Assembly: GCF_041146795.1 (NCBI RefSeq)
Contig: NC_135170.1
Span: 25,910,033 to 25,974,032 of the forward strand
From: Maylandia zebra
Taxonomy: Eukaryota; Chordata; Actinopteri; Cichliformes; Cichlidae
Length of the DNA stretch: 64,000 bases
Direction of reading: 5' to 3'
The notes beneath the pieces are model-generated. The model did not search any database. It had not been told where the DNA came from and saw nothing but the letters and a program-made list of their open reading frames with translations. Positions 20,648 to 64,000 of this stretch are shown piece by piece (position 1 is the stretch's first letter; each line of letters begins with the position of its first letter). A program made the translations under genes and the position numbers.

Positions 20648-23600
20648 ATGGCAGCTGCTGGGATGGATTCAAAATCTAAACCCTCTGATGCTGTGCTGGT
20701 AAGATGTCAGTGCAAAACTGATTTCTATGTTCTTGTTCTAATTATATAGGGAGGACTATATTCTTTAGATTTTAGAAATATATTAATTCTTCTAATTAGT
20801 TAAAAAAAATGTGTGTTATCATTTTTAGTTCTTCATAATAGATACATGTATTGATGTAATACACTATAATTAATTTGTTTTTAATGTTCAATGTTAGCTT
20901 TACAGAACCTTTATTGTGATATTGGAAAAAGATTAGCCATTAGGATGAATTATCTTTACATTAAGATTCACATTTGACCTTGAGTCAAGATGGTCTGAAA
21001 AAACTATTCATATTGAGAAACTATAATGTTGACAGTTCAAACAATTTTAACAATCTCTATACTGAATAGGAATCCCCAGAACTCGAGCAGATTCTGGACA
21101 TAATGAGTTACTCACAGCGTGGACGAATGGACGGACAGTGTTGCACTCTAAGTCCTGCTAAAATAGAGACGACATCTGCAGGTTGGAATAGTGAAAATAC
21201 CACAGTACAGTATACATCTCCCTTTTTTGGCCTGATTATTGATTGTTTCATTCTTGCTTCCCACAGGGTCAAAAGATGAGAGATCATCCCATACTTCAGA
21301 TAATAAACAGGGACAATATGTCAACTCGCATTTATCGTTGCCTGGATTTAATTACCAAGTACTAGACTTATGACTATAATATGATGAGGGATACACTGTA
21401 CAAGTAAAACATGATTAAATTACATCAGCTCTCAATTATTACCTGTTTTCTCAGGAAAGTGGACGTAATGATCATCATGTCTCTGCACCTCATATCTCAG
21501 TGACTGAGAGTACTCCAGATAGAAACAGGAAGCATCTGTCAGTTCCAGTTGACCAATTACAGATTCCTTCTCAACGTGAACGCTCAAATTCTATAAAGGT
21601 CTGTTAATGTGTTAACAAGTTATAACAGTGTTATTCTGATAGCTGTAACAATTAGATTTGTTGATGTTGACTTGTTTAATAATTGTTATCACATATACAT
21701 CACCCCATTCATTGAAGCTTTATCATGCTGTTTTAACCCAAAAAGTCAGAATCATCTGCTGAACAGCAAAAGTTCATGGAGATGATTGCCTATGGACAGC
21801 GTGGACGCATGGAGGACCAGTGCTGCTCATTGGATCCAAGCAAGAGTGCTCCTTGCACACCCAGATACACAGAGAAAACAACTGTTGCAAGTATGTTAAA
21901 CATGGCTGAAAATTCAATAATTTCTTGCCATTTTAATAAATTGCATTCATCATTTTAAACTTCCTTTATGAATCTGACTGTTTCAGGTTCTGACAGATTA
22001 AATATTTATATTGAAAATTTGCTGTATTTGACCAGTGACAGATCCTGAAATGTTCTTCAATCTGTTGGCCGACACTCAGAGCCGACGGCTCGATGACCAG
22101 CGAGTGTCGCTTCCATCATTACCAGGCTTACAAAATGAAAAGGACACTGCTATGGGAGATTCAAGCTACTTGTGTTACATGGTCTCTAAAGTTCAAGTAA
22201 GGAATTTTCTTTGTTCTCTTTTAATACAAAGTATCAAAATGCTGCATGGAACTTGACTGCTTGAAATTATGATATTAACTGCTTTGAGTCTGTTTTAACA
22301 GGAATGCCACATTAAAACATTTGAGGCAGATTTTCCACAGCTGTCAACTACAAGTGTAGCTTTTTAGTTAAGAGTTTAATAACCATATTATTTTATGTAT
22401 TTATAGTCAACGTATTGATCAAAAATGCTGACCTAATCTATTTTCAGGGCTCCAGAATGGATGATCAAAGGTGTTCATTACCTCAAATCCTACCCCCAGA
22501 GACACCGTGTTCATCAAACAAGGATCAGTCTGAATCCGGTTTAAACCCATTACGCTCAGCCTCCTTCAGCTCCAGTTCAGACATAAAGCAACTAAAAAGT
22601 GAGGATAAAAATCCTCAAAAACAGGTATATCCGCGCTTTCAGTTTTAGCCCCCCAAAAGAAATTGTAAATGGCATCGACACTATACAATGAGGTTTTAGA
22701 TCACCCCATTTCTTTTTGCATGTGTTATATTTTTGTATTATTCATTCACTTAACAAAATTCACATTATCCCATCTAGTTCTTGACTCCAGCTGAACAGGA
22801 AGATCTTTTTACCTTAATTAGTAATTCCCACCATGGCCGGATGGATGAACAGCGATGTGTCCTAAATGCTACACCCCAGTCCACACCTAAGCACCATTTC
22901 AGTCAAAGTGAAATCCCCCAAGGTCAGAAAACAGGAAATTTTCCCTTTGTTTCTTTTTTTGCATTTGATATTTTTTCTAAATTGTTTTGTACGTTGATAT
23001 ATAACAGCGCATACATTTCTCAATGAAGCTAACAAGTATTTTATTTTTCTCTAACATCCAATGCCCAGATTCTGATAATTTCTTCAGCTTACTGGCCAAC
23101 TCACAGGGCCGACGGCTGGACGACCAGAGAGTGTCCCTTCCTTCACTACCTGGAATACAGAATGGAGGTACCACATTAACACCCACTGCTGCTGAGACGG
23201 ATGCAAGCTACTTGTGTTATCTGGTTTCCAAAGTCCAGGTTGGCCCTATATGTAACATTGCGAAAAGTTATTCACAGCTTTTGTTTCTTTGTTAAGTATC
23301 CACGAAGTTTTTGCACATATAGATTTATCAGTTTTTCTTTAATCAAACTTTTTACCCACAGGGCTCAAGGATGGATGAACAGAGATGTTCTGCACCCCAC
23401 ATCTTCCAGAATCTGGGTACCCCATCAGCTCAGCACACATCTGGTAAACCTCCTTGGAGGTCTGCCTCATTAAACCGTGACAAAACTGAACAGCGTGGGC
23501 AGGTCAATGTTCATACCACATATCACTCAACATTGTTTTACCTATACTTTTTCTGCCCTGTAATTTTATATTTCTTAAGCAAGCCACAAAAACTATATAG

Positions 23601-24203
23601 TGATTGACTAGAACTTTTATTATCTAGTCTTTTAAAGAAATAACATAGCTGTATTGATTGCTTAATGGCAGCCTCTGTTTGCTATGTCTTTTTGAGAGTT
23701 GTCCCATTTCTTATGACATATCTTTCTGTAAAAAAATTTAGGGAATATCCGCAGCTGAGGAGGAGCAGTTCCTTAAAATGATAAGTCGAATACAAAGTGG
23801 ACGCATGGAAGAGCAACGCTGCTTTTTACAACCCAGCAGAAGCACACCTTCCTCACCTACACACAATGGCAGTGCTTTGAATAAAGTACCCATAGGTCAG
23901 AAAAATGCACAGTGCACTTGAATATGAGTATTTTGTCTCTGAAATGTCAAGAATAATTATTTCTCCATTATAGGTGCAGAAGCAGAGGCGTTCTTCAAAA
24001 TCATCACCTCCAGTCAGTCACGACGACTAGATGATCAGCGCGTTGCACTTCCTACCTTGCCAGGGATAAGTGGAAATTCTGAAGGAAAAGTAGACATACA
24101 ACGACATACAACAGCTGAAATCCCAGTAAGTTACACAACATCTAAATTATTGGTACTGTGAAAATTAAGAAAAGTGTAATAAATGTGGTTTTATTTATAT
24201 GTA

Positions 24204-24235
<32 letters not shown>

Positions 24236-25662
24236 TCTATATTTTTTTTTAAAACTTTTTTTAACTCTATGCACTCCCACAGAAGTTAAGTGCATGCAGG
24301 ACACCATGTCTCTCTCTCTCTCAGTTTATCATACTTAGAGACCCATCATATCCAACCATGTAAATGACCATTATGTAGACCTTAGGCTATCTCTCGTAAC
24401 CTTTGGCTTGTCTACAGTACTGTAACTAGATAATCATGACCAAAATTTCTTTCATGGCTCTAAATTTAGTTACCACTCTGTCAAAAACCTCAATTAAGAG
24501 TGTTTTTCCACCATTCTACTGCTGATTATATTTTAATAAATTGCAACTGATCATTTGTTTTTCTGCAATACACTTGCCAGTTTAATGGTCTCTCATCATT
24601 TCTGTTCTGTAAGGTCTCTCCACTACCACAGATCACAGTGGCTAAATGTACACCTACAACTTCAAAAAAGTGTCCTACACCTGCCTCACAACCTCAAATG
24701 GCATATGGAAAGCCTGGTTCCACTGAGGCCTTACCCAAATCTGCTTCACTTATTCCCAAGGGAGAATTTAAGAAGAAGTCTAATTTCCCAGCTAAGGTAA
24801 ATTCTTCACTTTTCCATTTTTTCAGTACATTCAAGTTTGTAGACAAATATATAACAAGTAATGTAAACACACATTAGTAGAGTATAACAATTTACCAGTA
24901 TTTTTATTCTCTAAAATATTATATGTTTCTGTATGGGACAAACGGATTCTCCTTTTTGAAAGCCTCCTGAATTAGAAACACAAAGGCTGATATCCTAGTA
25001 AATGAAAAAACAGAACAAAACAAAAAAAGCTGATAAGAGATTCTGTAACACTGTTTGAGTTCAGTGACTTGTGACATGTTACAGGTAACAGTGAGTGTAT
25101 CTGTGAGCTTCACACCTCAGGAGGTAAGTTGTAAGATAACTTATTACCCAAAGGTACTGCCATAATAAAAGAAGTGCCTTCAGTACTACTCTTTTCTTCT
25201 CTGGAAAATGAACAGAAGAATGCCAATGAGCCAGATGCATTTCCAGATGTCTATCTAACTCTTGGAGCCCCAGGGGACAACCTTGTGATACCTCTGAGTC
25301 CAGTATGTGGCAGGCCCTTGTCCTTTGACTTAAACCTTGTTATGAAGGAAGATGTTAAGTTCAGGCATCGCTCTCCAAGCCATTCCAGTCCCAGAAAAAA
25401 CAACTCCAGGCCACCATCTCCCAACAAAGGTGCGACTGGTAAAGCACATCCTACATGCTCACATGAACAGGGGAAGCTTGTGACCAGCCACATCAGTGCA
25501 GATGTAAACTCCTTCTCCCCAACTGAAAAGACTCACCTGGAGAAAGGAATTGCTCAAGAAGGACAAAAGGGGAAAGGAGAACTTGGAAAGGTGAGGGAAA
25601 AGGCACAGCATGGAAAAGGAAAGGGCGCTGTAAAGAAAGACATGAAGAAGAATGGCAAATAA
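20648..25662 (+). CDS. pcp2: Expanded multi-GoLoco protein, PCP2/L7-like
   Basis: Proposed exons: 20648-20698, 21070-21181, 21267-21358, 21455-21598, 21746-21890, 22036-22196, 22448-22624, 22778-22922, 23069-23238, 23362-23502, 23742-23895, 23974-24125, 24614-24796, 25085-25123, 25216-25662. All join in frame for 770 aa; an alternative acceptor before 24581 would add 11 aa. GoLoco motifs bind GDP-loaded Galpha-i/o and block nucleotide release; PCP2/L7 is a Purkinje and retinal bipolar cell protein with two. Here nine cores are visible: [72 protein letters not shown] and SRRLDDQRV. Exons repeat as A-B-C cassettes. The C-terminal 149-residue exon is Ser/Pro- and Lys-rich and unfamiliar. Naming rests on the motif and on linkage to pet100 and stxbp2; GPSM-type proteins are the alternative. 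The exon 5 acceptor (AAAAG) is weak. Confidence 0.8.
21070..21598 (+). repeat. GoLoco cassette 1 (exons A1-B1-C1), two units degenerate
   Basis: Exon A1 (21070-21181) carries the core RGRMDGQCC, with Cys where the GoLoco Asp-Gln-Arg triad has Arg. Exon B1 (21267-21358) keeps only a LSLPGFNYQ tail resembling the SLPSLPG-x-Q of other B exons. Exon C1 (21455-21598) has [13 protein letters not shown] against [14 protein letters not shown] in cassette 3, so its core is lost. Exon phases (0-1, 1-0, 0-0) are the same as in the other cassettes. Confidence 0.7.
21746..22624 (+). repeat. GoLoco cassette 2 (exons A2-B2-C2)
   Basis: Exons 21746-21890, 22036-22196 and 22448-22624. A2 has RGRMEDQCC (Arg to Cys again). 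B2 has [20 protein letters not shown], a full motif, and ends [12 protein letters not shown]2 opens [12 protein letters not shown], so the C motif is assembled across the B-C intron, with its helix encoded by the end of B and its triad by the start of C. Confidence 0.8.
22778..23502 (+). repeat. GoLoco cassette 3 (exons A3-B3-C3)
   Basis: Exons 22778-22922, 23069-23238 and 23362-23502. Motif cores are [18 protein letters not shown] and GSRMDEQRC, all with the Gln-Arg pair intact. B3 again ends [11 protein letters not shown] before the intron, and C3 ends with a RSASL tail shared with C2 (RSASF) and C4 (KSASL). Confidence 0.8.
23742..24796 (+). repeat. GoLoco cassette 4 (exons A4-B4-C4), last unit degenerate
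   Basis: Exons 23742-23895, 23974-24125 and 24614-24796. Cores are SGRMEEQRC (A4) and SRRLDDQRV (B4). B4 lacks the SYLCY-VSKVQ tail and C4 lacks the triad, so the C-type motif is lost, but C4 keeps the KSASL tail and the 0-0 phase. The B4-C4 intron is longer than the others and holds a TA repeat. Confidence 0.65.
24197..24221. repeat. (TA)n microsatellite in a pcp2-like intron
   Basis: About 12 TA dinucleotides followed by T-rich DNA in which a TTTTTTTTAACTCTAT segment occurs twice in tandem. Confidence 0.85.
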
Positions 25663-26234
25663 TGTACTTGTAAATTATGGGATTTAAATGTAAAAAAAAT
25701 AAGTAGCAAAAAAATTGTATTTGTATTGCTAAAAGCTCTTATTAGAAATTATGTTGATTCTGCTTTATAGGGTCATTTGAAGGATAGTCCTTTGCTAGCT
25801 AAATTTACAGTACATATTGTGTCTATTGTTTTCAGTTTTGCAAATTTTCTAAATGTAAATACACTGTAAGGAATTCTATTCTTTCTGTCAATTATAATTG
25901 TAATCTTGAATTAAAACCTTTGGTCTGTTAAACTCTGTGAAGATGTGACAAAAACCAAACCAAAACAAACATGAAAAAAAAACCCCAACAGCAATAAATG
26001 GGGAATCATTTCCTTTGGTCTGAATTCTGAACTTTGACATCTGCATTTAGCATTGGAGCATATGGGTCGTCTACTCCACCTACAGAGCTGAAAACATGAC
26101 CATATGAAGTAGAACATGCTAAGCAATAAAAAGAAAACATAATACTTTGGAAATTTTCACCATTTATTGAGGATTTACAGAGTAAGTTGTTCATATTGTA
26201 TGAACTCTTAAATGCTGCAACTAGATTGCATTTC
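25663..26234. other. Convergent 3' UTRs of the pcp2-like gene and myosin gene
   Basis: The two stop codons face each other 572 bp apart. A plus-strand AATAAA lies near 25993 (pcp2-like) and a minus-strand polyadenylation signal (plus TTTATT) at 26163-26168 (myosin), so the mature 3' ends are probably within about 150 bp of each other. No other feature was seen. Confidence 0.6.
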
Positions 26235-37448
<11,214 letters not shown>

Positions 37449-38167
37449 GATGGAACTTTAGGGGGCTGAAATTGAGAGGTTGAGAGGTTTTGTTTTCTTT
37501 GTTGTCTTTATTTTCATAAACATCCCCATGCTAATGTGTGTGTTTGGGAATTGTTCAGATATCACAGAAAATACACTATAATGTACCTTCCTTAGTCCCA
37601 GCAGAAAACTGTAAACTCTTGATTCTGTTGCTTGAATCCTAATAACAAACCATCAACTGTTAGAGTTTGTATTGTTGATTGTCATTTATGCTTAGAAATA
37701 TTTAACCATATATGCTTAGAGGTGTATAATCACTTGTGTAGTGATAGGATGTGTGATCTTTAGCAGGCCCCAAAGGCTTGGTGTGCATTCCAGGAATTGT
37801 CCGGTTCTCTCCCGTGCACGAGTAACATGAAGAAGCTTGCCTACTTGAGTCTTGCTTTGCAGTGTAATTATATTGTCTTCAACGTTCCAGCGAATAGGTT
37901 TATGCTCTAAAACCTATCATCAACTATAATAAATATGGGTGTCCATTAATTTCAAAATATACTACTACTACTACTGCTAAAATTATTATTATTAGTTGTA
38001 GTAGTAGTAACCGTAAACAATTCTAAAAGCATTAAAACGTGCAGTGTTAAATATCCCAAAGCTATGATAAAATTGTGTTTCACAATGCAAAATAGCTGAA
38101 GTTAATGTTCTTACCTGAGTTGGAAGCCTATCAGTTGCTGACTCAGACTGAAGCACCCTCTTTTATA
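37449..38167 (-). promoter_or_regulatory. Myosin gene 5' UTR exons and TATA promoter
   Basis: The first coding exon begins at an acceptor at 37465 with 17 nt of leader. Upstream is a 22-nt non-coding exon at 37587-37608, supported by a 22-nt homologue with proper splice sites in the neighbouring copy (48186-48207). A first exon ends at the donor at 38115. TATAAAA on the minus strand (plus 38161-38167) is placed to start transcription near 38130-38140. Three-part 5' leaders with two introns before the ATG are usual for vertebrate MYH genes. Confidence 0.7.
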
Positions 38168-43670: not shown

Positions 43671-44246
43671 TTTAGTGAAGCCTGACCAACACATATATAA
43701 TATATGTCAGATATATATATATATCTGACTGCACTCCTTAAAACTGGAAAACAATTAAATAACACTGACAGGTTAAGGTGCTGACCATGAACAGTCCCTT
43801 AGTTATCAGCCCTATTCTCTTGTTATTTAGTCAATTCATAAAATGAAAAGCTGTCAAATGAAAATAAATAACTTCCTTATACGTACAATAAATACAATAA
43901 ATTTGACCAGTTCTTAGCAAATGGTTTCTGTCTAAATATTATTACTTCTTAGATATTTTCTGCATTATATGGCTATCTGTAGAGCTAATAAATATTCCTT
44001 CTGAATACTCCTTTTCAAAAGTGGCTACTAAGCAATTCAGTATGGCTTTTTATTTATTACTTTTAATAGCTCCCTCTTAATTGATTACATTTACATTCTA
44101 AACATTATTTTACGAAAGCAAAGAAACATTAAAATGAATGAGTCATTTTCAAAACATTGATTGATATTTTGCAATATGCATTAAAAGCATCCAACAGATG
44201 ATTCATATTTTATGAAATCTGTTGAACAGCTTCATTCAAGTGTGTC
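43671..44246. other. Intergenic DNA and 3' UTR of the second myosin copy
   Basis: AT-rich, with a short ATATAT palindrome near 43707-43733. The region just before 44246 would have been the 3' UTR of the adjacent degraded myosin copy. Confidence 0.45.
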
Positions 44247-48071
<3,825 letters not shown>

Positions 48072-48185
48072 TGGAGACTGAAAATATGACATAAATTGAA
48101 ACAATGTGACCATTTATGAGTTCTTGAAATTTTCTTAAGCAGATATCTTCTATCATGAAAATGTCATTTACATCGAACCACTTAC

Positions 48186-48508: not shown

Positions 48509-51500
48509 TTATTAATCCTTTATTTATCCAGGTAAAAAATCTCATTGAGATTAAAAATCTCATTTCCAAGAGAGACCTGGCATCATAGCAACAAAAGTCA
48601 CATACCACATAGGTATAACATTTAAAACAAATACAATATCGCATACAAACATGTGTAAAATATACAATAACAGATCAAATACAAAAAGAGTACATTAAAA
48701 ACAATCACACTGAGTAAAAGAGCTGTTCTCTCGTTCCTTTAAGACAGACTTAAACTCTCCCAAGGTAACCAATTCTGATAATTTCAGTTCCTTCTGCAGA
48801 TTATTCCAGGAAGCAGGGGCAGCGTATTTAAAAGCCCCTTTCCCCCATTCTGTTCTGATTTTTGGGACAATCAAGTGTATGATTTTGTTCGAACGAAGGT
48901 TGTATTGGTTGTGGTTTTTACACATATAAACACATAAATAAGATGGAACCAGCCCAAGGAGAGATTTATAGATAAAAATCAACCAATGGGAGAGTCTACG
49001 AATATGCAAAGATGGACATTTAGCAGCAGCATACAGAGAACAATGATGTACACGACTTCCATAGCCAGTAATAAAACGTAAAGCACAATGGTACACAGTA
49101 TCCAACCTCTTTAGGTAGTGGGCAGGTGCATTCATAAAAAGCAGGTCACCATAATCCAATAAAGGTAAAAAGGTTGAACGAATCAAATGTTTTCTCACTT
49201 GGAGGGAGAAACAGGATTGGTTTCTAAAAAGTAACCTAGTTTTAGTTTTAACTTCGACACAAGCCTTTGAATGTGAGTCTTAAATGACAAATTCTGATCT
49301 ATAATGATCCCTAGATACTTGTAAGATGTGACCATTTCAATTTCAGATCCTTGAATTGTTTTAATCTTAGGAGACGTAGCTAACAACTCTTTGCCATTTG
49401 AGAATAACATAAACTTGGATTTCTCTGGATTTAACACCAACTTAAGTTGAGTTAAATGGGACTGAACGACATCAAAGGCAGACTGCAGAAATTGCAGGGT
49501 TTGTGCTACTGAAGGGGATGAACAATAAATAATTGTATCATCTGCATAAAGATGAAATGCTGCATTTGACAAATTATCACAAAGGTTGTTTATGTAAAGA
49601 GAAAATAGCAATGGTCCTAATATGGAGCCCTGCAGAACTCCTTTGGATACTGGGAGAAAAGAGGAAGAAGACCCAGCAGCACGGACACACTGTTTTCTTG
49701 CTGACAAGTAATTTGAAAACCAACTTACAGCATTTACAGATAGACCAATATTGTTTAGTCTATTTAATAAAATAGCATGGTCAACTGTATCAAAAGCCTT
49801 TGACAAGTCAAGAAAAAGAGCCGCACAGTATTTTTTGCAGTCCATTGAATCAACAATGTCATTAACCACTTTAATAGCAGCAGTTATTGTGCTGTGTTGT
49901 TTTCTGAATCCTGACTGATGTTGGGAAAGAACTGAATTTTTGTCCAAAAAATCTTTCAGTTGTTCACTAATGAACTTTTCTAGAACTTTTGCTAGAACAC
50001 ACAATTTAGATATGGGCCTGTAATTATTAACATCTGAAGGATCACCTCCTTTCAGCAAAGGGAGAACATAGGCAGATTTCTATATTACAGGGATCTCACT
50101 GTTCGAGAGGCTAAGATTAAAAATGTAAGTTATTGGTTCTGCTATAAAATCTGCAGCCAACTTAAGAAAATAGGGATCAAGTTGATCTGTTCCTCTGGAC
50201 CTCAAAAACATTTAGCGGAGAAAAACTGAAGGGTTGGACCACAGATTCAGTTTGAGCGGTTGCAGAGAGAGCCTCTTGTTGATTAAGCTGTTTTAAATCT
50301 GGATATAAAGATTCAAATAGAGATCCTGAAGAAACAAAATGCTCATTAAAGCAGTTTAGAATGTCGCATTTCTCTGTTAAAGTACAGGAGTCTTTTACAA
50401 CAAAAGTTGGCATCTCATTTGTAATTATGTCCCCATAAGAAGATTTTATTATTTTCCAGAATTTTTTAGGATCGTTCAAATGTTTAGTAGTATTTGAAAG
50501 ATAGAATTCTGATTTGGCCTTTTTAATTAAGGAAGTTGAACGGTTTCTAAGCTGTCTAAAAATCAGCCAATCCGCTTCGGATTTAGTTTTTCTGGCCTTA
50601 GCCCAGGCAGCATCCCTTTTTTTGAGTAGACTAGAGAGCTGAAGAGAAAATCAAGGGTTGTTTCTGCATTTTACTCTAAATTTGCAGATAGGGGCATGTT
50701 TATTTGTAATTTTGATAAAAGTATCATAAAAATAATTCCATGCCAGCTCAAGATCAGTTATCAGGTAGATTCTACTCCAGTTATAGTCCCATAAATCATG
50801 AAAGAAAGCTTGCTCACAGAAATGCTTAAAATCTCGTTTAAAAGCTATCTGTGGCCTTGATTTTGGGAGCTTCGATTGCCTGACTACTAGGGCTGCCACA
50901 AACGATTATTTTGATAGTCGACTAGTCACCGATTATTTTTGCGATTAGTCGACTAATCAGATCATCATCCATTAGACGTAAAACTACAGCTTATTGCACC
51001 AGCAGCATCTGCTCTTATATAACTATCATTAGCTTACAGCTTTAAGTGTTTAAGGTCTGTGCTAACTAAAAATAAAGACAAGATGATAGTTTATTGAATT
51101 TTAATGAAATTTGCAGATTGTTTCGGTGAAGATTAATAAACTCCTTGCTATCTAAAATATAACAGGACACTGGAGTATATTCTGGAGCATCTCACACTTC
51201 TGATAATCAGCTGTCTGCTTGACCTTTATTCAGCTGTGTAAAAACTATAACTTTAATCTCAGACAAACTGATTTACTCAGGAACAAATAAAATACTTAAA
51301 AAAAAAGCCAAACAACATTTTGAAGTTATCTAAGTGACTCATATATATTTAACCTGAGTAGCGAAAGACGGCGGTGGGTTTGAAAACGATTTGCGGGGAG
51401 TCCGGTGTTCTCACGGCGCTAGTGAGCCTAGCCCCCGGCTCGCTAACGAGCTAGTGGGTAACAGATGTCTCCGAAAACGTCGGAGCGCTTTTGAAAATAT

Positions 51501-52950
51501 GTGGTGTCCTGATAAACTGAGCAGATATTTGAGGTTTACACAGCTACATTCTCGCCTGAAAATATGTTAAACGTTTATTTTGTGACCCAGAAAGAATAAT
51601 AAGAGTAACATTAAAACTAACTAGCTGCCGCCATTGTTGGAAACTGCGCTGGGCTGCGCTATGAATTCTGGGACACAGCTGCTTCTTCTTCTTCTTCTTC
51701 GGGGTTTAACGGTAGCTGACATCCTTGTACATGCAGTGCTGCCATCTTCTGTTTCAGTCCGTTATTACACTCTTAAATCCTGCCACTTATTCCTGCGTCT
51801 TTTGTGATCGTACAAAGTTTCAAACGACGCGTCGACTATTAAATCAGTCGTCGACGATTTTGATAGTCGACGTAATCGTGACTAGTCGACAAATCGTGGC
51901 AGCCCTACTGACTACAGCTACCACACAGTGGTCACTGATATCATTTGCGAAAACCCCAGTGTGAGAATATTTATACGGCATATTAGTTAAAAATAAATCA
52001 ATAAGTGATGACTTTTCTGGGCATTTAAGATTTGGACGAGTTGTGCTGTAAATTAGTTGTGTGAGATTATATGAATCACACATGGATTTAAAACTGTCTG
52101 AGGCAGAGGACAACCAGTCCCAGTTGAAATCTCCGGCCAGCACAATTTCATTAAAATCTAAAGTAGATCGTTTTTCACTAAGTGAAACTAAAGCCTCACT
52201 ACTAGCTGAGGGGGGTCTATAACAGCCCACAATGGTAATAAAATAGCCCTTGAAAAGTTGGAGTTTGAGGGCAAGAAGTTCAAACTGCTTACAAACAGAT
52301 ACCGATGAATCGACAGTAACATGGAATTTGCTTTTTACATAAATTGCAACACCGCCACCCTTTCTGGGGCGGTCGCAACGGAAAAGATTATAGCCCGTTA
52401 TTGCAATGTCTTTGTCAGTAATTGATTTAGTAAGCCAGGTTTCTGATAATATAAGAATATCAGTATCTAACTCTTTCATCAAAATTTTCACAAAATCAAG
52501 TTTGGGAAGAAGACTTCTGACATTTAAATGAGTGATACCAAGACCTGTTCAAGTTTTGAAATCACAAGGAGTACTTAAGCATTTGCAGTCTGGATCGGGA
52601 TTAGGTTGCACATTTCCAGATAAAAGAAGCAGAAGAACAATAAAACATTTTCTTTTCATAGATTTTTCTTGTAGGATTACAGACTGATTTCTCTTAGGGG
52701 GGTGAGAAGATTGGGAAATAAACCAGTAATATGGAATGAATAAATCAGTTAAATCAGTTGAAATGAGATCTCTGCTGATAATCACGTTTGAGAAACTTCT
52801 AAAAGATGTAAAATCCCACCTTGTTCCCTTTGAGAGGAGTAAGAAGTATGGTGTCTCTTGCTCCACAGACTGTTCCTGCACCTCATGTAGGCAAAAAGCG
52901 GTCTTCATTACAGGGTGGTTCTGGGACTTTGTTACTTGACAGTTATCGAC
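48509..52950 (-). mobile_element. Near full-length LINE (Rex1/L2/CR1-type), disabled
   Basis: Minus orientation. An N-terminal hydrophobic stretch with GNVQPNPDP (52549-52908) is followed by an APE-type endonuclease (from 52491: ILSETWLT, GGGVAIYVK, LAGDFNWDW, SDHCVVAVV). After a nested hAT element come a linker (50899-50177) and a reverse transcriptase (50058-49195) with GFRKQHST, FLDLSKAFDTVDH, GVLQGSILGPLLFSLYINN and the catalytic YADD. A C-terminal part (49198-48695) ends in a PASWNNLQKELK region. The 3' tail includes TTTATTTATCCAGGTAAAAA on the plus strand. A TAG in place of an expected Trp near 50082 and frameshifts near 49200 and 50180 make it non-autonomous. Without the hAT it is about 3.4 kb. 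Confidence 0.88.
50888..51907. mobile_element. Non-autonomous hAT transposon with 8-bp target duplication
   Basis: The element starts TAGGGCTGCCAC and ends GTGGCAGCCCTA, perfect 12-bp terminal inverted repeats. It is flanked on both sides by CTGACTAC (50880-50887 and 51908-51915), an exact 8-bp target-site duplication, the hallmark of hAT elements. Subterminal regions are rich in GTCGAC/GACTAGTC repeats. The interior (1020 bp in all) has no transposase frame. It lies inside the LINE, between its endonuclease and reverse transcriptase parts, so it inserted later. Confidence 0.93.
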
Positions 52951-54790: not shown

Positions 54791-56345
54791 GCATGATCAA
54801 ACTCTTGGCTCTTAGCTTATTGACCTGGGACTCAGCAATGTCATTGCACTCTTGAGCTTCTTCCAGCTCATGCTGAACCTTTCTCAGCCTGGGTAGGTAG
54901 ATGTTGGCATGTTCCTCTTGTAGTTGATGGGAATTAAAATGAGGGCACCCTCATTTATATATTAGTTAATTTAACTTCAGTTTAATTTAATATTTACTTT
55001 TCATATTTCTGCATTCTCTCTCAGGTAGTTGTACAGAATAGTATACAGTAGCTTTGTTTTGAGGAGCACTGTAAAAAGGATTTTAATATATTATTGTAAG
55101 TGTTAAAAACAATCAAACCTGAGGGAAGCAGTCTGACACGGTCACTAGCACCAACCAACTCCTGTCCAGCAACTCCTAATCCTCTCTCTGTCTGCTCCAG
55201 AGCGGCTCTCAGCTCCTCAATTTCAGCCATCATGAGACCATTTCTGCGCTCCACCATGGTGACCTGCTCCTTCATGTCTTCCTGTCCTCTGAAAGGATCA
55301 TCCAGGTGTAGCTGGGAATACTGATAAAGTATTTCAGACTTCTCAGTCTCAACAGTCTTCTTGGCCTTTTCCAGCTCATGGATGCTCTGTCCAGTCTCAC
55401 CAATCTGCTAAGTCAGATCTGAGATCTTCTCTAAAGAGCAAACACAGCCAAGAGTTAGAGTACTTGGAGCTGACATATGCAAATGTTTTTGCTACAACAA
55501 AAGCAAGATAAGCATACGCTGCAAGTTCTTGTTCTCTCTCTTCATGGTCTCAAGATGATCCAGAGCCTCTTCATATGAGTTCTTCATCTTGAACAACTCA
55601 GTGCAGAGAGAACGAGCCTCCTTTTGGGCTCCTTCCAGCTCTGCCTGGCTCTCCTCATACTTCTGCTTCCATTCTGCCAGGACCTAGGTTTATATAGGTT
55701 AATTAGTTAGTTGTTATTATTGGTGTATGCCTATTCTGATGATATTGGTTATGTTTAAATCTTTACTTTATCAAAGTTCCTTTGCTTCTTGTCAAGGTTG
55801 GCAGCCAGGGCTTTAGCTCTCTTCACATCAATCATGAGGTCCTCCACCTCACCCTGCAGCCTCTGCTTGGTCTTCTCCAGTGAGGCACACTTGGAGTTCA
55901 CAGCCTCAATGGATTCCTCAGCCTCCTGCAGGCGCTGGGCAATCTGCAACACTGTCAGCCTGCTTCTTGCGGAGAGCAATTTCTGAAACTCAGCTTCTCG
56001 CTTTGTGTTAAACTCAATCTGAGCAGCTGTTGCTCCACCAGCTTCATTGAGCCTCTTGCTGATCTCTTCAAGCTCCCTGGAGAGGTCGGCTCTCTGCTTC
56101 TCTATCTTAGCCTGAGCCGCCCTCTCAGCCTCAATCTCCTCTTCAATATGAGCCTAGTTTGAAGTTTTATATTAACAGAGCTTGTCAATGGGAACTTATA
56201 TTGTAATTGTTTTTCATATGAATGAATAATATTCATTATGAACGCTGTTCATTAGTTTTACCTTAAGTTACCTAAAGAATCTTGCTGAGAAGCTGGCTTA
56301 ATTCCTTAAGCCAGCTTCTCCATCAAGTTTTTCCTTGATGGAGAA
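54791..56345 (-). pseudogene. Myosin heavy chain rod fragment, multiply deleted
   Basis: Rod exon matches, from the 3' side: 54791-54919 (132-bp exon, acceptor AG changed to AA); 55119-55321 (204-bp exon with a 2-bp deletion near its donor end); 55328-55431 (125-bp exon, in-frame TAG, joined directly to the previous exon so the 309-bp exon is lost); 55517-55682 (166-bp exon, intact); 55768-55943 (184-bp exon) fused inside the exon to 55944-56155 (part of the 390-bp exon); and a trace of the 91-bp exon near 56275-56345, rebuilt into hairpins. Four rod exons between the first two are missing and no motor exon remains. Confidence 0.9.
56287..56344. repeat. Two overlapping perfect hairpins in a decayed myosin exon
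   Basis: First hairpin: GAGAAGCTGGCTTAA (56287-56301) and its reverse complement (56306-56320), loop TTCC. Second: TCTCCATCAAG (56317-56327) and its reverse complement (56334-56344), loop of 6. They share four bases. The left part matches the 91-bp rod exon (AAGAAGCTGACTGATTTC in the intact gene), so the palindromes were made from exon sequence. Confidence 0.8.
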
Positions 56346-59035: not shown

Positions 59036-60396
59036 TGACAAGGTGTCAAAAAACAAATATATACCCATTTCAATTATTTATTTTTACCAGTGAAACCAAT
59101 ATAACATCTCCACATTCACAAATATACATTTCTGACATTCAAAAACAAAACAAAAACAAATCAGCGACCAATATAGCCACCTATCTTTGCAAGGACACTC
59201 AAAAGCCTGCCATCCATGGATTCTGTCAGTATTTTGATCTGTTCACCATCAACATTGCGTGCAGCAGCAACCACAGCCTCCCAGACACTGTTCAGAGAGG
59301 TGTACTGTTTTCCCTCCTTGTAAATCTCACATTTGATGATGGACCACAGGTTCAAATGGGGTTCAGATCAGGTGAACAAGGTGGGCATGTCATTAGTTTT
59401 TCTTCTTTTATACCCTTTCTTGCCAGCCACGCTGTGGAGTACTTGGACGCGTGTGATGGAGCATTGTCCTGCATGAAAATCATGTTTTTCTTGAAGGATG
59501 CAGACTTCTTCCTGTACCACTGCTTGAAGAAGGTGTCTTCCAGAAACTGGCAGTAGGACTGGAAGTTGAGCTTGACTCCATCCTCAACCCGAAAAGGCCC
59601 CACAAGCTCATCTTTGATGATACCAGCCCAAACCAGTACTCCACCTCCACCTTGCTGGCGTCTGAGTCGGACTGGAGCTCTCTGCCCTTTACCAATCCAG
59701 CCACGGGCCCATCCATCTGGCCCATCAAGACTCACTCTCATTTCATCAGTCCATAAAACTTTAGAAAAACCAGTCTTGAGATATTTCTTGGCCCAGTCTT
59801 GACGTTTCAGCTTGTGTGTCTTGTTCAGTGGTGGTCGTCTTTCAGCCTTTCTTACCTTGGCCATGTCTCTGAGTATTGCACACCTTGTGCTTTTGGGCAC
59901 TCCAGTGATGTTGCAGCTCTGAAATATGGCCAAACTGGTGGCAAGTGGCATCTTGGCAGCTGCACGCTTGACTTTTCTCAGTTCATGGGCAGTTATTTTG
60001 CGCCTTGGTTTTTCCACATGCTTCTTGCGACCCTGTTGACTATTTTGAATGAAACGCTTGATTGTTCGGTGATCATGCTTCAGAGGTTTTGCAATTTTGA
60101 GACTGCTGCATCCCTCTTCAAGATATCTCACTATTTTTGACTTTTCTGAGCCTGTCAAGTCCTTCTTTTGACCCATTTTGCCAAAGGAAAGGACGTTGCC
60201 TAATAATTATGCACACCTGATATAGGGTGTTGATGTCATTAGACCACACCCCTTCTCATTACAGAGATGCACATCACCTAATATGCTTAATTGGTAGTAG
60301 GCTTTCGAGCCTATACAGCTTGGAGTAAGACAACATGCATGAAGAGGATGAAGTGGACAAAATACTCATTTGCCTAATAATTCTGCACTCCCTGTA
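59036..60396 (-). mobile_element. Tc1-like DNA transposon, disabled
   Basis: Transposase is on the minus strand. The 5' end near 60396 (plus ...CACTCCCTGTA) has an outer TTGCCTAATAATTCTGCAC (60370-60388) and an inner near-identical direct repeat TTGCCTAATAATTATGCAC (60196-60214), the IR/DR arrangement seen in Sleeping-Beauty-like elements. I could not find the matching inverted repeat at the other end. Homology seems to run out near 59036, so the 3' end is probably truncated. Confidence 0.8.
59161..60176 (-). pseudogene. Tc1-like transposase, frameshifted at the catalytic Glu
   Basis: The frame from the ATG at 60176 reads MGQKKDLTGSEKSKIVRYLE, a helix-turn-helix, then a GRKKHVEKPRRKIT basic segment, WTDEMRVSLDGPDGWARGWI (first catalytic Asp), a Gly-rich block, and FMQDNAPSHASKYS (second Asp) up to CSPDLNPI. 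There a small indel brings in a stop (59352) exactly where the family has Glu-(H/N)-LW. The next frame continues NLWSIIKCEIYKEG to GGYIG at 59161. So two Asp of the DD34E triad are intact and the Glu is lost. Codons elsewhere are clean, implying recent inactivation. Confidence 0.9.

Positions 60397-60826: not shown

Positions 60827-64000
<3,174 letters not shown>

What the first reader, a model, noticed from the sequence alone, without database searches (positions are those of the whole stretch)
20648..25662. Fourfold amplification of a phase-symmetric three-exon GoLoco cassette
Exons 2-13 repeat as A-B-C four times. Every A exon runs phase 0 to 1, every B exon 1 to 0 and every C exon 0 to 0, so the cassette can be duplicated without breaking the frame. 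The result is nine recognisable GoLoco cores in one protein of about 770 aa, against two in mammalian PCP2 (about 100-136 aa, recalled). A protein that could hold several GDP-bound Galpha-i/o subunits at once would differ in kind from mammalian PCP2. Seen in sequence: cores, phases, order. Inference: multivalent G-protein scaffold.
Basis: partly seen in the sequence, partly recalled or inferred. Interest (0 to 1): 0.8.

Follow-up and report, generated by a model that had tools for sequence, protein, structure and literature searches.

The report
Fish PCP2-like gene, fourfold GoLoco array
A fish gene that appears to be the counterpart of mammalian PCP2 carries a three-exon G-protein-binding unit four times over, so its protein could hold up to about seven G-protein subunits where the mammalian protein is said to hold two, but no transcript or binding test exists yet.

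Summary
A 15-exon chain at 20648-25662 has GT-AG borders at all 14 introns and keeps one frame for 768 aa; exons 2-13 run A (phase 0>1), B (1>0), C (0>0) four times. Pfam finds GoLoco at 164 bits and nothing else above cut-off. Two corrections. First, B1, C1 and C4 no longer carry GoLocos, and A1 and A2 have Cys where the GDP-contacting Arg belongs, so 7 of 12 slots keep the D/E-Q-R triad. Second, the cassette was not invented here: GPSM-type loci of the same genome carry GoLocos 1, 2 and 3 on exons with the same phases, GoLoco 3 being cut at the same residue in 4 of 5. The gene is a fourfold repeat of an old GPSM exon triplet, without TPR domain, beside stxbp2, a gene of the mammalian Pcp2 neighbourhood. 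dN/dS of about 0.08 with near-saturated silent sites between cassettes 2 and 3 says the repeat is old and selected as protein. Best reading: a multivalent Galpha-i/o-GDP binder. Binding, expression and spread among fish are untested.

The parts
20648..20698 (+). exon 1, start codon; a second in-frame ATG at 20663 has the better sequence context (by eye)
   Evidence: sequence
21070..21181 (+). exon A1 (phase 0>1), GoLoco core 21085-21153 with QCC instead of QRC
   Evidence: no Pfam match alone, matches A2
21267..21358 (+). exon B1 (1>0), no GoLoco, assigned by phase and place
21455..21598 (+). exon C1 (0>0), decayed GoLoco second half (weak match to C3)
21746..21890 (+). exon A2 (0>1), GoLoco core 21767-21835 with QCC instead of QRC
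22042..22196 (+). exon B2 (1>0), GoLoco core 22047-22115 with triad, and helix half of the next GoLoco
22448..22624 (+). exon C2 (0>0), second half of the intron-split GoLoco (22164-22483 with the end of B2)
22778..22922 (+). exon A3 (0>1), GoLoco core 22799-22867, triad kept, Pfam 18.0 bits (below cut-off)
23069..23238 (+). exon B3 (1>0), GoLoco core 23074-23142 with triad (43.7 bits), and helix half of the next
23362..23502 (+). exon C3 (0>0), second half of the intron-split GoLoco (23206-23397 with the end of B3)
23742..23895 (+). exon A4 (0>1), GoLoco core 23763-23831 with triad
23974..24125 (+). exon B4 (1>0), GoLoco core 23985-24053 with triad; no helix half of a next GoLoco seen (by eye)
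24614..24796 (+). exon C4 (0>0), no GoLoco, assigned by phase and place; codon usage looks coding
25085..25123 (+). exon 14, 39 nt, phase 0>0
25216..25662 (+). exon 15, 148-aa tail (basic at its C-terminal end, by eye) with no Pfam match and no second copy found in the genome
11700..18100 (+). neighbouring gene stxbp2 (Munc18-2), approximate limits, exons picked by eye

Best explanation
This is a real protein-coding gene, most likely the fish counterpart of PCP2. An exon triplet that carries GoLocos 1, 2 and 3 of the GPSM family (A = GoLoco 1, B = GoLoco 2, B/C junction = GoLoco 3) was duplicated in tandem to four copies inside one gene that has no TPR domain. Since then three slots have been lost and two have lost the GDP-contacting Arg, leaving seven cores with the full triad whose starts lie 39-77 residues apart, between residues 184 and 522. 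The protein most likely works as a receptor-independent, multivalent binder that holds several Galpha-i/o-GDP subunits at once, slows their GDP release and so keeps them from Gbeta-gamma. Shown: exons, frame, phases, motifs, triad loss, likeness of the exon triplet, neighbour, selection. Inferred: binding, valence of about seven, sign of the action, expression in Purkinje and bipolar neurons, effect on signalling.
For: Frame and 14 of 14 GT-AG introns. GoLoco 164 bits. Weak matches to crystallised LGN (GPSM2) GoLoco chains, E 0.003 to 0.19. GPSM-type loci of the same genome, by candidate splice sites picked by eye: GoLoco-1 exon phase 0>1 in 4 of 4 loci that have it, GoLoco-2 exon entered in phase 1 in 4 of 5 (no candidate listed for C12), GoLoco-3 exon entered in phase 0 in 5 of 5 and at the same residue as C2 and C3 in 4 of 5, C11 being off by one; both B/C cores score best against GoLoco 3. 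C7 matches GPSM2 at 84.9 bits. Upstream stxbp2: 420.9 bits to STXBP2 against 379.8 to STXBP1; Pcp2 and Stxbp2 are both drawn in the Retn neighbourhood (PMC4467842, passages). Cassettes 2 and 3: dN 0.12, dS 1.43, 25 of 40 differences at third positions. LGN and AGS3 GoLoco domains bind four Galpha-i3-GDP at once (PMC12151148, passages). An Arg finger of the motif contacts the GDP beta phosphate (PMC12329598, passages).
Against: No transcript was available. B1, C1 and C4 are not recognisable as GoLoco exons, and B1 is marginal as coding. A3 is below the Pfam cut-off alone. PCP2 orthology rests on one neighbour; that Pcp2 and Stxbp2 are direct neighbours in mammals is recalled (the passages list both but state no order), and the zebrafish neighbourhood is reported as dispersed (same paper). 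B cores score about as well against GoLoco 4 as GoLoco 2, and A3 and A4 score best against GoLoco 4, so for A and B the case rests on exon phase and order and, by eye, the LPG tail of B. The sign of PCP2 action is not uniform in print: one paper says that Pcp2 stimulates GDP release from Galpha-o (PMC6585000, passage).
Confidence: 0.68

Rival explanations
1. The gene is a GPSM paralogue (GPSM3-like, or a GPSM1/2 copy that lost its TPR part), not PCP2, and the closeness to stxbp2 is chance or secondary.
For: The exon triplet is the GPSM one. By eye the B/C core resembles that of the C12 locus. The other side of the gene holds a myosin heavy chain array, which is not in the list of mammalian neighbours that I saw.
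Against: Five other GPSM-type loci are already present in this genome. stxbp2 is the upstream gene. No GoLoco 4, which those five loci keep.
Confidence: 0.2
2. The array is spliced down in life: most transcripts carry one or two cassettes, and the extra cassettes are tolerated passengers or serve only rare isoforms.
For: Every C exon, every A+B pair and every whole cassette can be skipped in frame (phases). Mouse pcp2 is alternatively spliced, with products of different biochemical properties (PMC5243870, passages). Cassette 1 has decayed.
Against: Protein-level selection between cassettes 2 and 3 (dN/dS about 0.08); the triad is kept in the five recognisable cores of cassettes 3 and 4.
Confidence: 0.25
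3. Pseudogene or wrong gene model.
For: Three of 12 cassette exons are unrecognisable; the first ATG has a weak context (by eye).
Against: No stop or frameshift within 2307 nt, 14 of 14 GT-AG introns, third-position excess between cassettes.
Confidence: 0.05

Closest known systems
PCP2 (Purkinje cell protein 2, L7), mammals
   Same: GoLoco protein of the same gene neighbourhood as Stxbp2; the mouse frame spans exons 2 to 4 (PMC5243870, passages), which could be one A-B-C set (inference)
GPSM1 and GPSM2 (AGS3, LGN)
   Same: GoLoco 1-2-3 exons of GPSM-type loci here have the same phases, GoLoco 3 split at the same residue in 4 of 5; tandem GoLocos that bind Galpha-i3-GDP together
   Different: AGS3 and LGN have a TPR domain and four GoLocos (PMC12151148); here no TPR, no GoLoco 4, and four sets
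GPSM3 (short GPSM without TPR, recalled); the C12 locus here may be it
   Same: no TPR (recalled); B/C core like the intron-split GoLoco of C12 (by eye)
   Different: three GoLoco stretches in the C12 fragment, no repeat of the set seen there

Membership tests
GoLoco motif (PF02188) | whole-protein score above the curated cut-off of 25.1 bits | tested here: met
   164 bits, 8 stretches; single cores 6 of 9 above it
GoLoco motif (PF02188) | D/E-Q-R triad with the Arg finger | tested here: met
   in 7 of 9 cores; A1 and A2 have Cys for Arg
PCP2 | GoLoco motifs without TPR, RGS or GAP domain | tested here: met
   only GoLoco above cut-off in the protein; five open frames from the roughly 2.5 kb upstream, three + and two -, have no Pfam match
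PCP2 | gene lies with STXBP2 | tested here: met
   stxbp2 upstream here; both in the mammalian neighbourhood figure; direct adjacency in mammals recalled
PCP2 | short protein with two GoLocos (recalled) | tested here: not met
   768 aa, nine cores
PCP2 | groups with PCP2 in a gene tree | not tested
   no vertebrate PCP2 sequence was compared
PCP2 | expression in Purkinje cells and retinal bipolar cells | not testable with these tools
   no transcript data
GPSM1/GPSM2 | N-terminal TPR domain | tested here: not met
   none in the protein; the upstream gene is stxbp2
GPSM1/GPSM2 | GoLoco 1-2-3 exon phases 0>1, 1>0, 0 with GoLoco 3 split by an intron | tested here: met
GPSM1/GPSM2 | GoLoco 4 beside GoLoco 3 in one exon | tested here: not met
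   not seen in C1 to C4; present in five of five GPSM-type loci read

The most novel reading that the evidence does not exclude
Fish use an amplified PCP2 as a tunable sink for Galpha-o/i-GDP: about seven sites per molecule, with the number set by in-frame skipping of cassettes, so that one gene gives a graded series of buffers that set how strongly and how long Gbeta-gamma acts on calcium channels or on the ON-bipolar cascade. The mammalian two-site protein would then be the reduced form, or the single-set ancestor.
Probability: 0.25. Interest if true: 0.65.

Novelty: new variant of a known kind. Interest (0 to 1): 0.42.

Why it matters
It ties a PCP2-like gene to the GPSM family by exon structure and shows a natural series of tandem GoLocos with intact, Arg-less and lost sites in one protein. 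If the intact sites all bind, it would hold more Galpha-i/o-GDP than LGN or AGS3 with their four, and be a ready test of what valence does in neurons. A search of the held open-access library for the phrases 'five GoLoco' to 'ten GoLoco' found no paper, and one for GoLoco, PCP2 and zebrafish together found only one, on bird genes; subscription journals and sequence databases were not covered, so annotated copies may well exist.

Tried and rejected
Recent assembly duplication: rejected, since the long repeat blocks are 62-77% identical in DNA. A second copy of the tail in the genome: none found (three matches, the best apart from itself with E 1.7). A second array: the genome-wide GoLoco search gave 18 matches, four in this gene and 14 elsewhere; 12 of the 14 lie in five loci that read as GPSM-type (C7, C11, C12, C17, C18), two are single matches (C3, C6) where my motif pattern found nothing. 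That count is a lower bound: only four of this gene's own cores were listed. Searches with the whole protein or a three-exon-set stretch never ran. Placing A and B cores by sequence alone to GoLoco 1 and 2: inconclusive (the C11 GoLoco-1 row there is out of register by one residue, which lowers the GoLoco-1 means, and the C17 GoLoco-3 and C18 GoLoco-2 rows were left out). GPSM identity was checked against solved structures for C7 only; fragments of C7, C11, C12 and C17 were checked for the GoLoco family, six of six matched. A species name was not sought. No structure was predicted, because the protein looks mostly unstructured between short motifs (judgement, not tested).

Papers: passages seen of PMC6792250, PMC4467842, PMC8576264, PMC5243870, PMC12329598, PMC6585000 and PMC12151148; the other papers only in the listings. 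PMC6585000 says in one sentence that Pcp2 stimulates GDP release from Galpha-o, while the reference list of PMC5243870 has a title on a pcp2 form with reduced GDI activity; the sign of PCP2 action is thus not uniform in print.
Full report
WHAT IS THERE. The window holds, on the + strand from 20648 to 25662, fifteen exons that join into one frame of 2307 nt with a single stop at the end, 768 aa; all 14 introns begin with GT and end with AG. Exon 1 is followed by twelve exons in the order A, B, C four times. A exons run phase 0 to 1, B exons 1 to 0, C exons 0 to 0, then come a 39-nt exon and a 447-nt last exon. Pfam's GoLoco model scores 164 bits over the whole protein in 8 stretches; the only other listed family is below its cut-off. 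I set the exon borders by hand from the sequence; no transcript was available.

HOW MANY SITES. Cut out one by one, 6 of 9 cores pass the Pfam cut-off of 25.1 bits (A4 30.3, B2 36.2, B3 43.7, B4 28.9, B/C2 37.3, B/C3 33.0); A2 has 23.5, A3 18.0, and A1 is not reported; the joined B1-C1 stretch, given as a tenth piece, is not reported either. A1 is nevertheless a relative of A2 (alignment score 91, none of 1000 shuffles as high). The cassette offers three GoLoco places: A, B, and a third that is split by the intron between B and C, helix on the B exon and Arg part on the C exon. Of these 12 places, 7 keep the D/E-Q-R triad (B2, B/C2, A3, B3, B/C3, A4, B4), two have Cys for the Arg (A1, A2), and three are gone (B1, B/C1, B/C4). 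[quoted passage not shown] that is inference.

HOW FIRM ARE THE ODD EXONS. B1 is no closer to the other three B exons than shuffled sequence (138 to 345 of 1000 shuffles as good), C4 is no closer to C2 or C3 (389 and 538), and C1 shows no match to C2 (359) and a weak one to C3 and C4 (7 and 2). They are called B and C by place and phase. In a small codon-usage test trained on myosin frames and the other exons of the gene, C1 (0.26 bits per codon) and C4 (0.24) look coding and B1 (0.12) marginal, against about -0.55 for stop-free intron stretches; B1 scores 0.11 in another stop-free frame and exon 14 (0.12) scores higher in its other frames, so for these two the test does not pick the frame.

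AGE AND SELECTION. Cassettes 2 and 3, compared over 58 codons of B and B/C, have dN 0.12 and dS 1.43, with 12, 3 and 25 differences at first, second and third positions. Of the ten single-block pairs, dS is not computable for four and is 1.2 or more for the other six. The duplications are old, and the protein has been kept by selection.

WHERE THE CASSETTE COMES FROM. The window lies in a genome of 962 Mb held as 63 contigs. A genome-wide GoLoco search gave 18 matches, 4 in this gene and 14 elsewhere. Twelve of the 14 fall in five loci that I read (C7, C11, C12, C17, C18); two single matches (C3, C6) were fetched but showed no core with the pattern I used. C7 matches GPSM2 chains at up to 84.9 bits; the other four are called GPSM-type by their likeness to it. 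By candidate splice sites picked by eye from short lists, without transcripts: the GoLoco-1 exon is phase 0 to 1 in 4 of 4 loci that have it (C7, C11, C17, C18); the GoLoco-2 exon is entered in phase 1 in 4 of 5 (no candidate was listed for C12); the exon with the Arg part of GoLoco 3 is entered in phase 0 in 5 of 5, at the same residue as C2 and C3 in 4 of 5, with C11 off by one. The A-B-C cassette is therefore the GPSM GoLoco 1-2-3 exon triplet. B/C cores also score best with GoLoco 3. A and B cores are not sorted well by score alone: A1 and A2 score best with GoLoco 1, B2 and B4 with GoLoco 2, but A3, A4 and B3 with GoLoco 4, so for them phase and order carry the case. GoLoco 4, kept in all five loci, is missing here.

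WHICH GENE. Upstream on the same strand lie stxbp2 exons: a rough join of open-frame pieces matches STXBP2 at 420.9 bits against 379.8 for STXBP1 and 247 for STXBP3, and a piece from 17.7-18.0 kb matches the Sec1 family near its end. Pcp2 and Stxbp2 are both in the figure of the mammalian Retn neighbourhood (PMC4467842, figure legend and passages); that they are direct neighbours there is recalled. The same paper says that closely linked genes of the neighbourhood are dispersed in fish such as zebrafish. The gene has no TPR, which argues against GPSM1/2. PCP2 is the best name, with one neighbour as its main support and no gene tree. The orientation of the two genes may differ from mammals (recalled, not tested).

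HOW IT LIKELY WORKS. LGN and AGS3 GoLoco domains bind four Galpha-i3-GDP at once with affinities like those of single motifs (PMC12151148, passages). With 39 to 77 residues between the starts of successive cores from A2 on, the seven intact cores have room to do the same. The protein should hold several Galpha-i/o-GDP, slow their GDP release and keep them off Gbeta-gamma. In mouse, Pcp2 interacts with Galpha-o and modulates Go action on P/Q-type calcium channels; the paper that says so writes that it stimulates GDP release (PMC6585000, passages), which would be the opposite sign. Mouse pcp2 is made in Purkinje and retinal bipolar neurons (PMC5243870, passages); whether the fish gene is used there is unknown. 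Because C exons, A+B pairs and whole cassettes can be skipped in frame, valence could be tuned by splicing; that is inference, in line with known alternative splicing of mouse pcp2.

VERDICT. A true and interesting gene structure; a new variant of a known kind. The most important corrections are that the cassette is an old GPSM exon triplet, and that about seven, not nine, sites are likely to bind.

Noticed in passing
26230-38000, 44000-48100, 55000-56200, 61600-63800 (approximate, by eye): Array of myosin heavy chain genes or fragments, read mostly on the - strand, downstream of the GoLoco gene; the frame at 37170-37457 matches the myosin N-terminal domain.
   Followed up: partly
C18 locus (L019 with L020), GoLoco-2 exon: The GPSM-type copy on C18 has a GoLoco-2 exon without the D/E-Q-R triad, while its GoLocos 1, 3 and 4 keep it.
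   Followed up: no
35255-35605 +: Open frame of 116 codons on the + strand within the myosin region with a weak acyl-CoA dehydrogenase match (E 0.045, below cut-off).
   Followed up: no
48695-52950 - and 59352-60206 -: By eye, a LINE-like element with reverse transcriptase and endonuclease frames, and a Tc1/mariner-like transposase frame.
   Followed up: no
25216-25662 +: The 148-aa tail of the GoLoco gene has no Pfam match and no second copy found in the genome; its function is unknown.
   Followed up: partly
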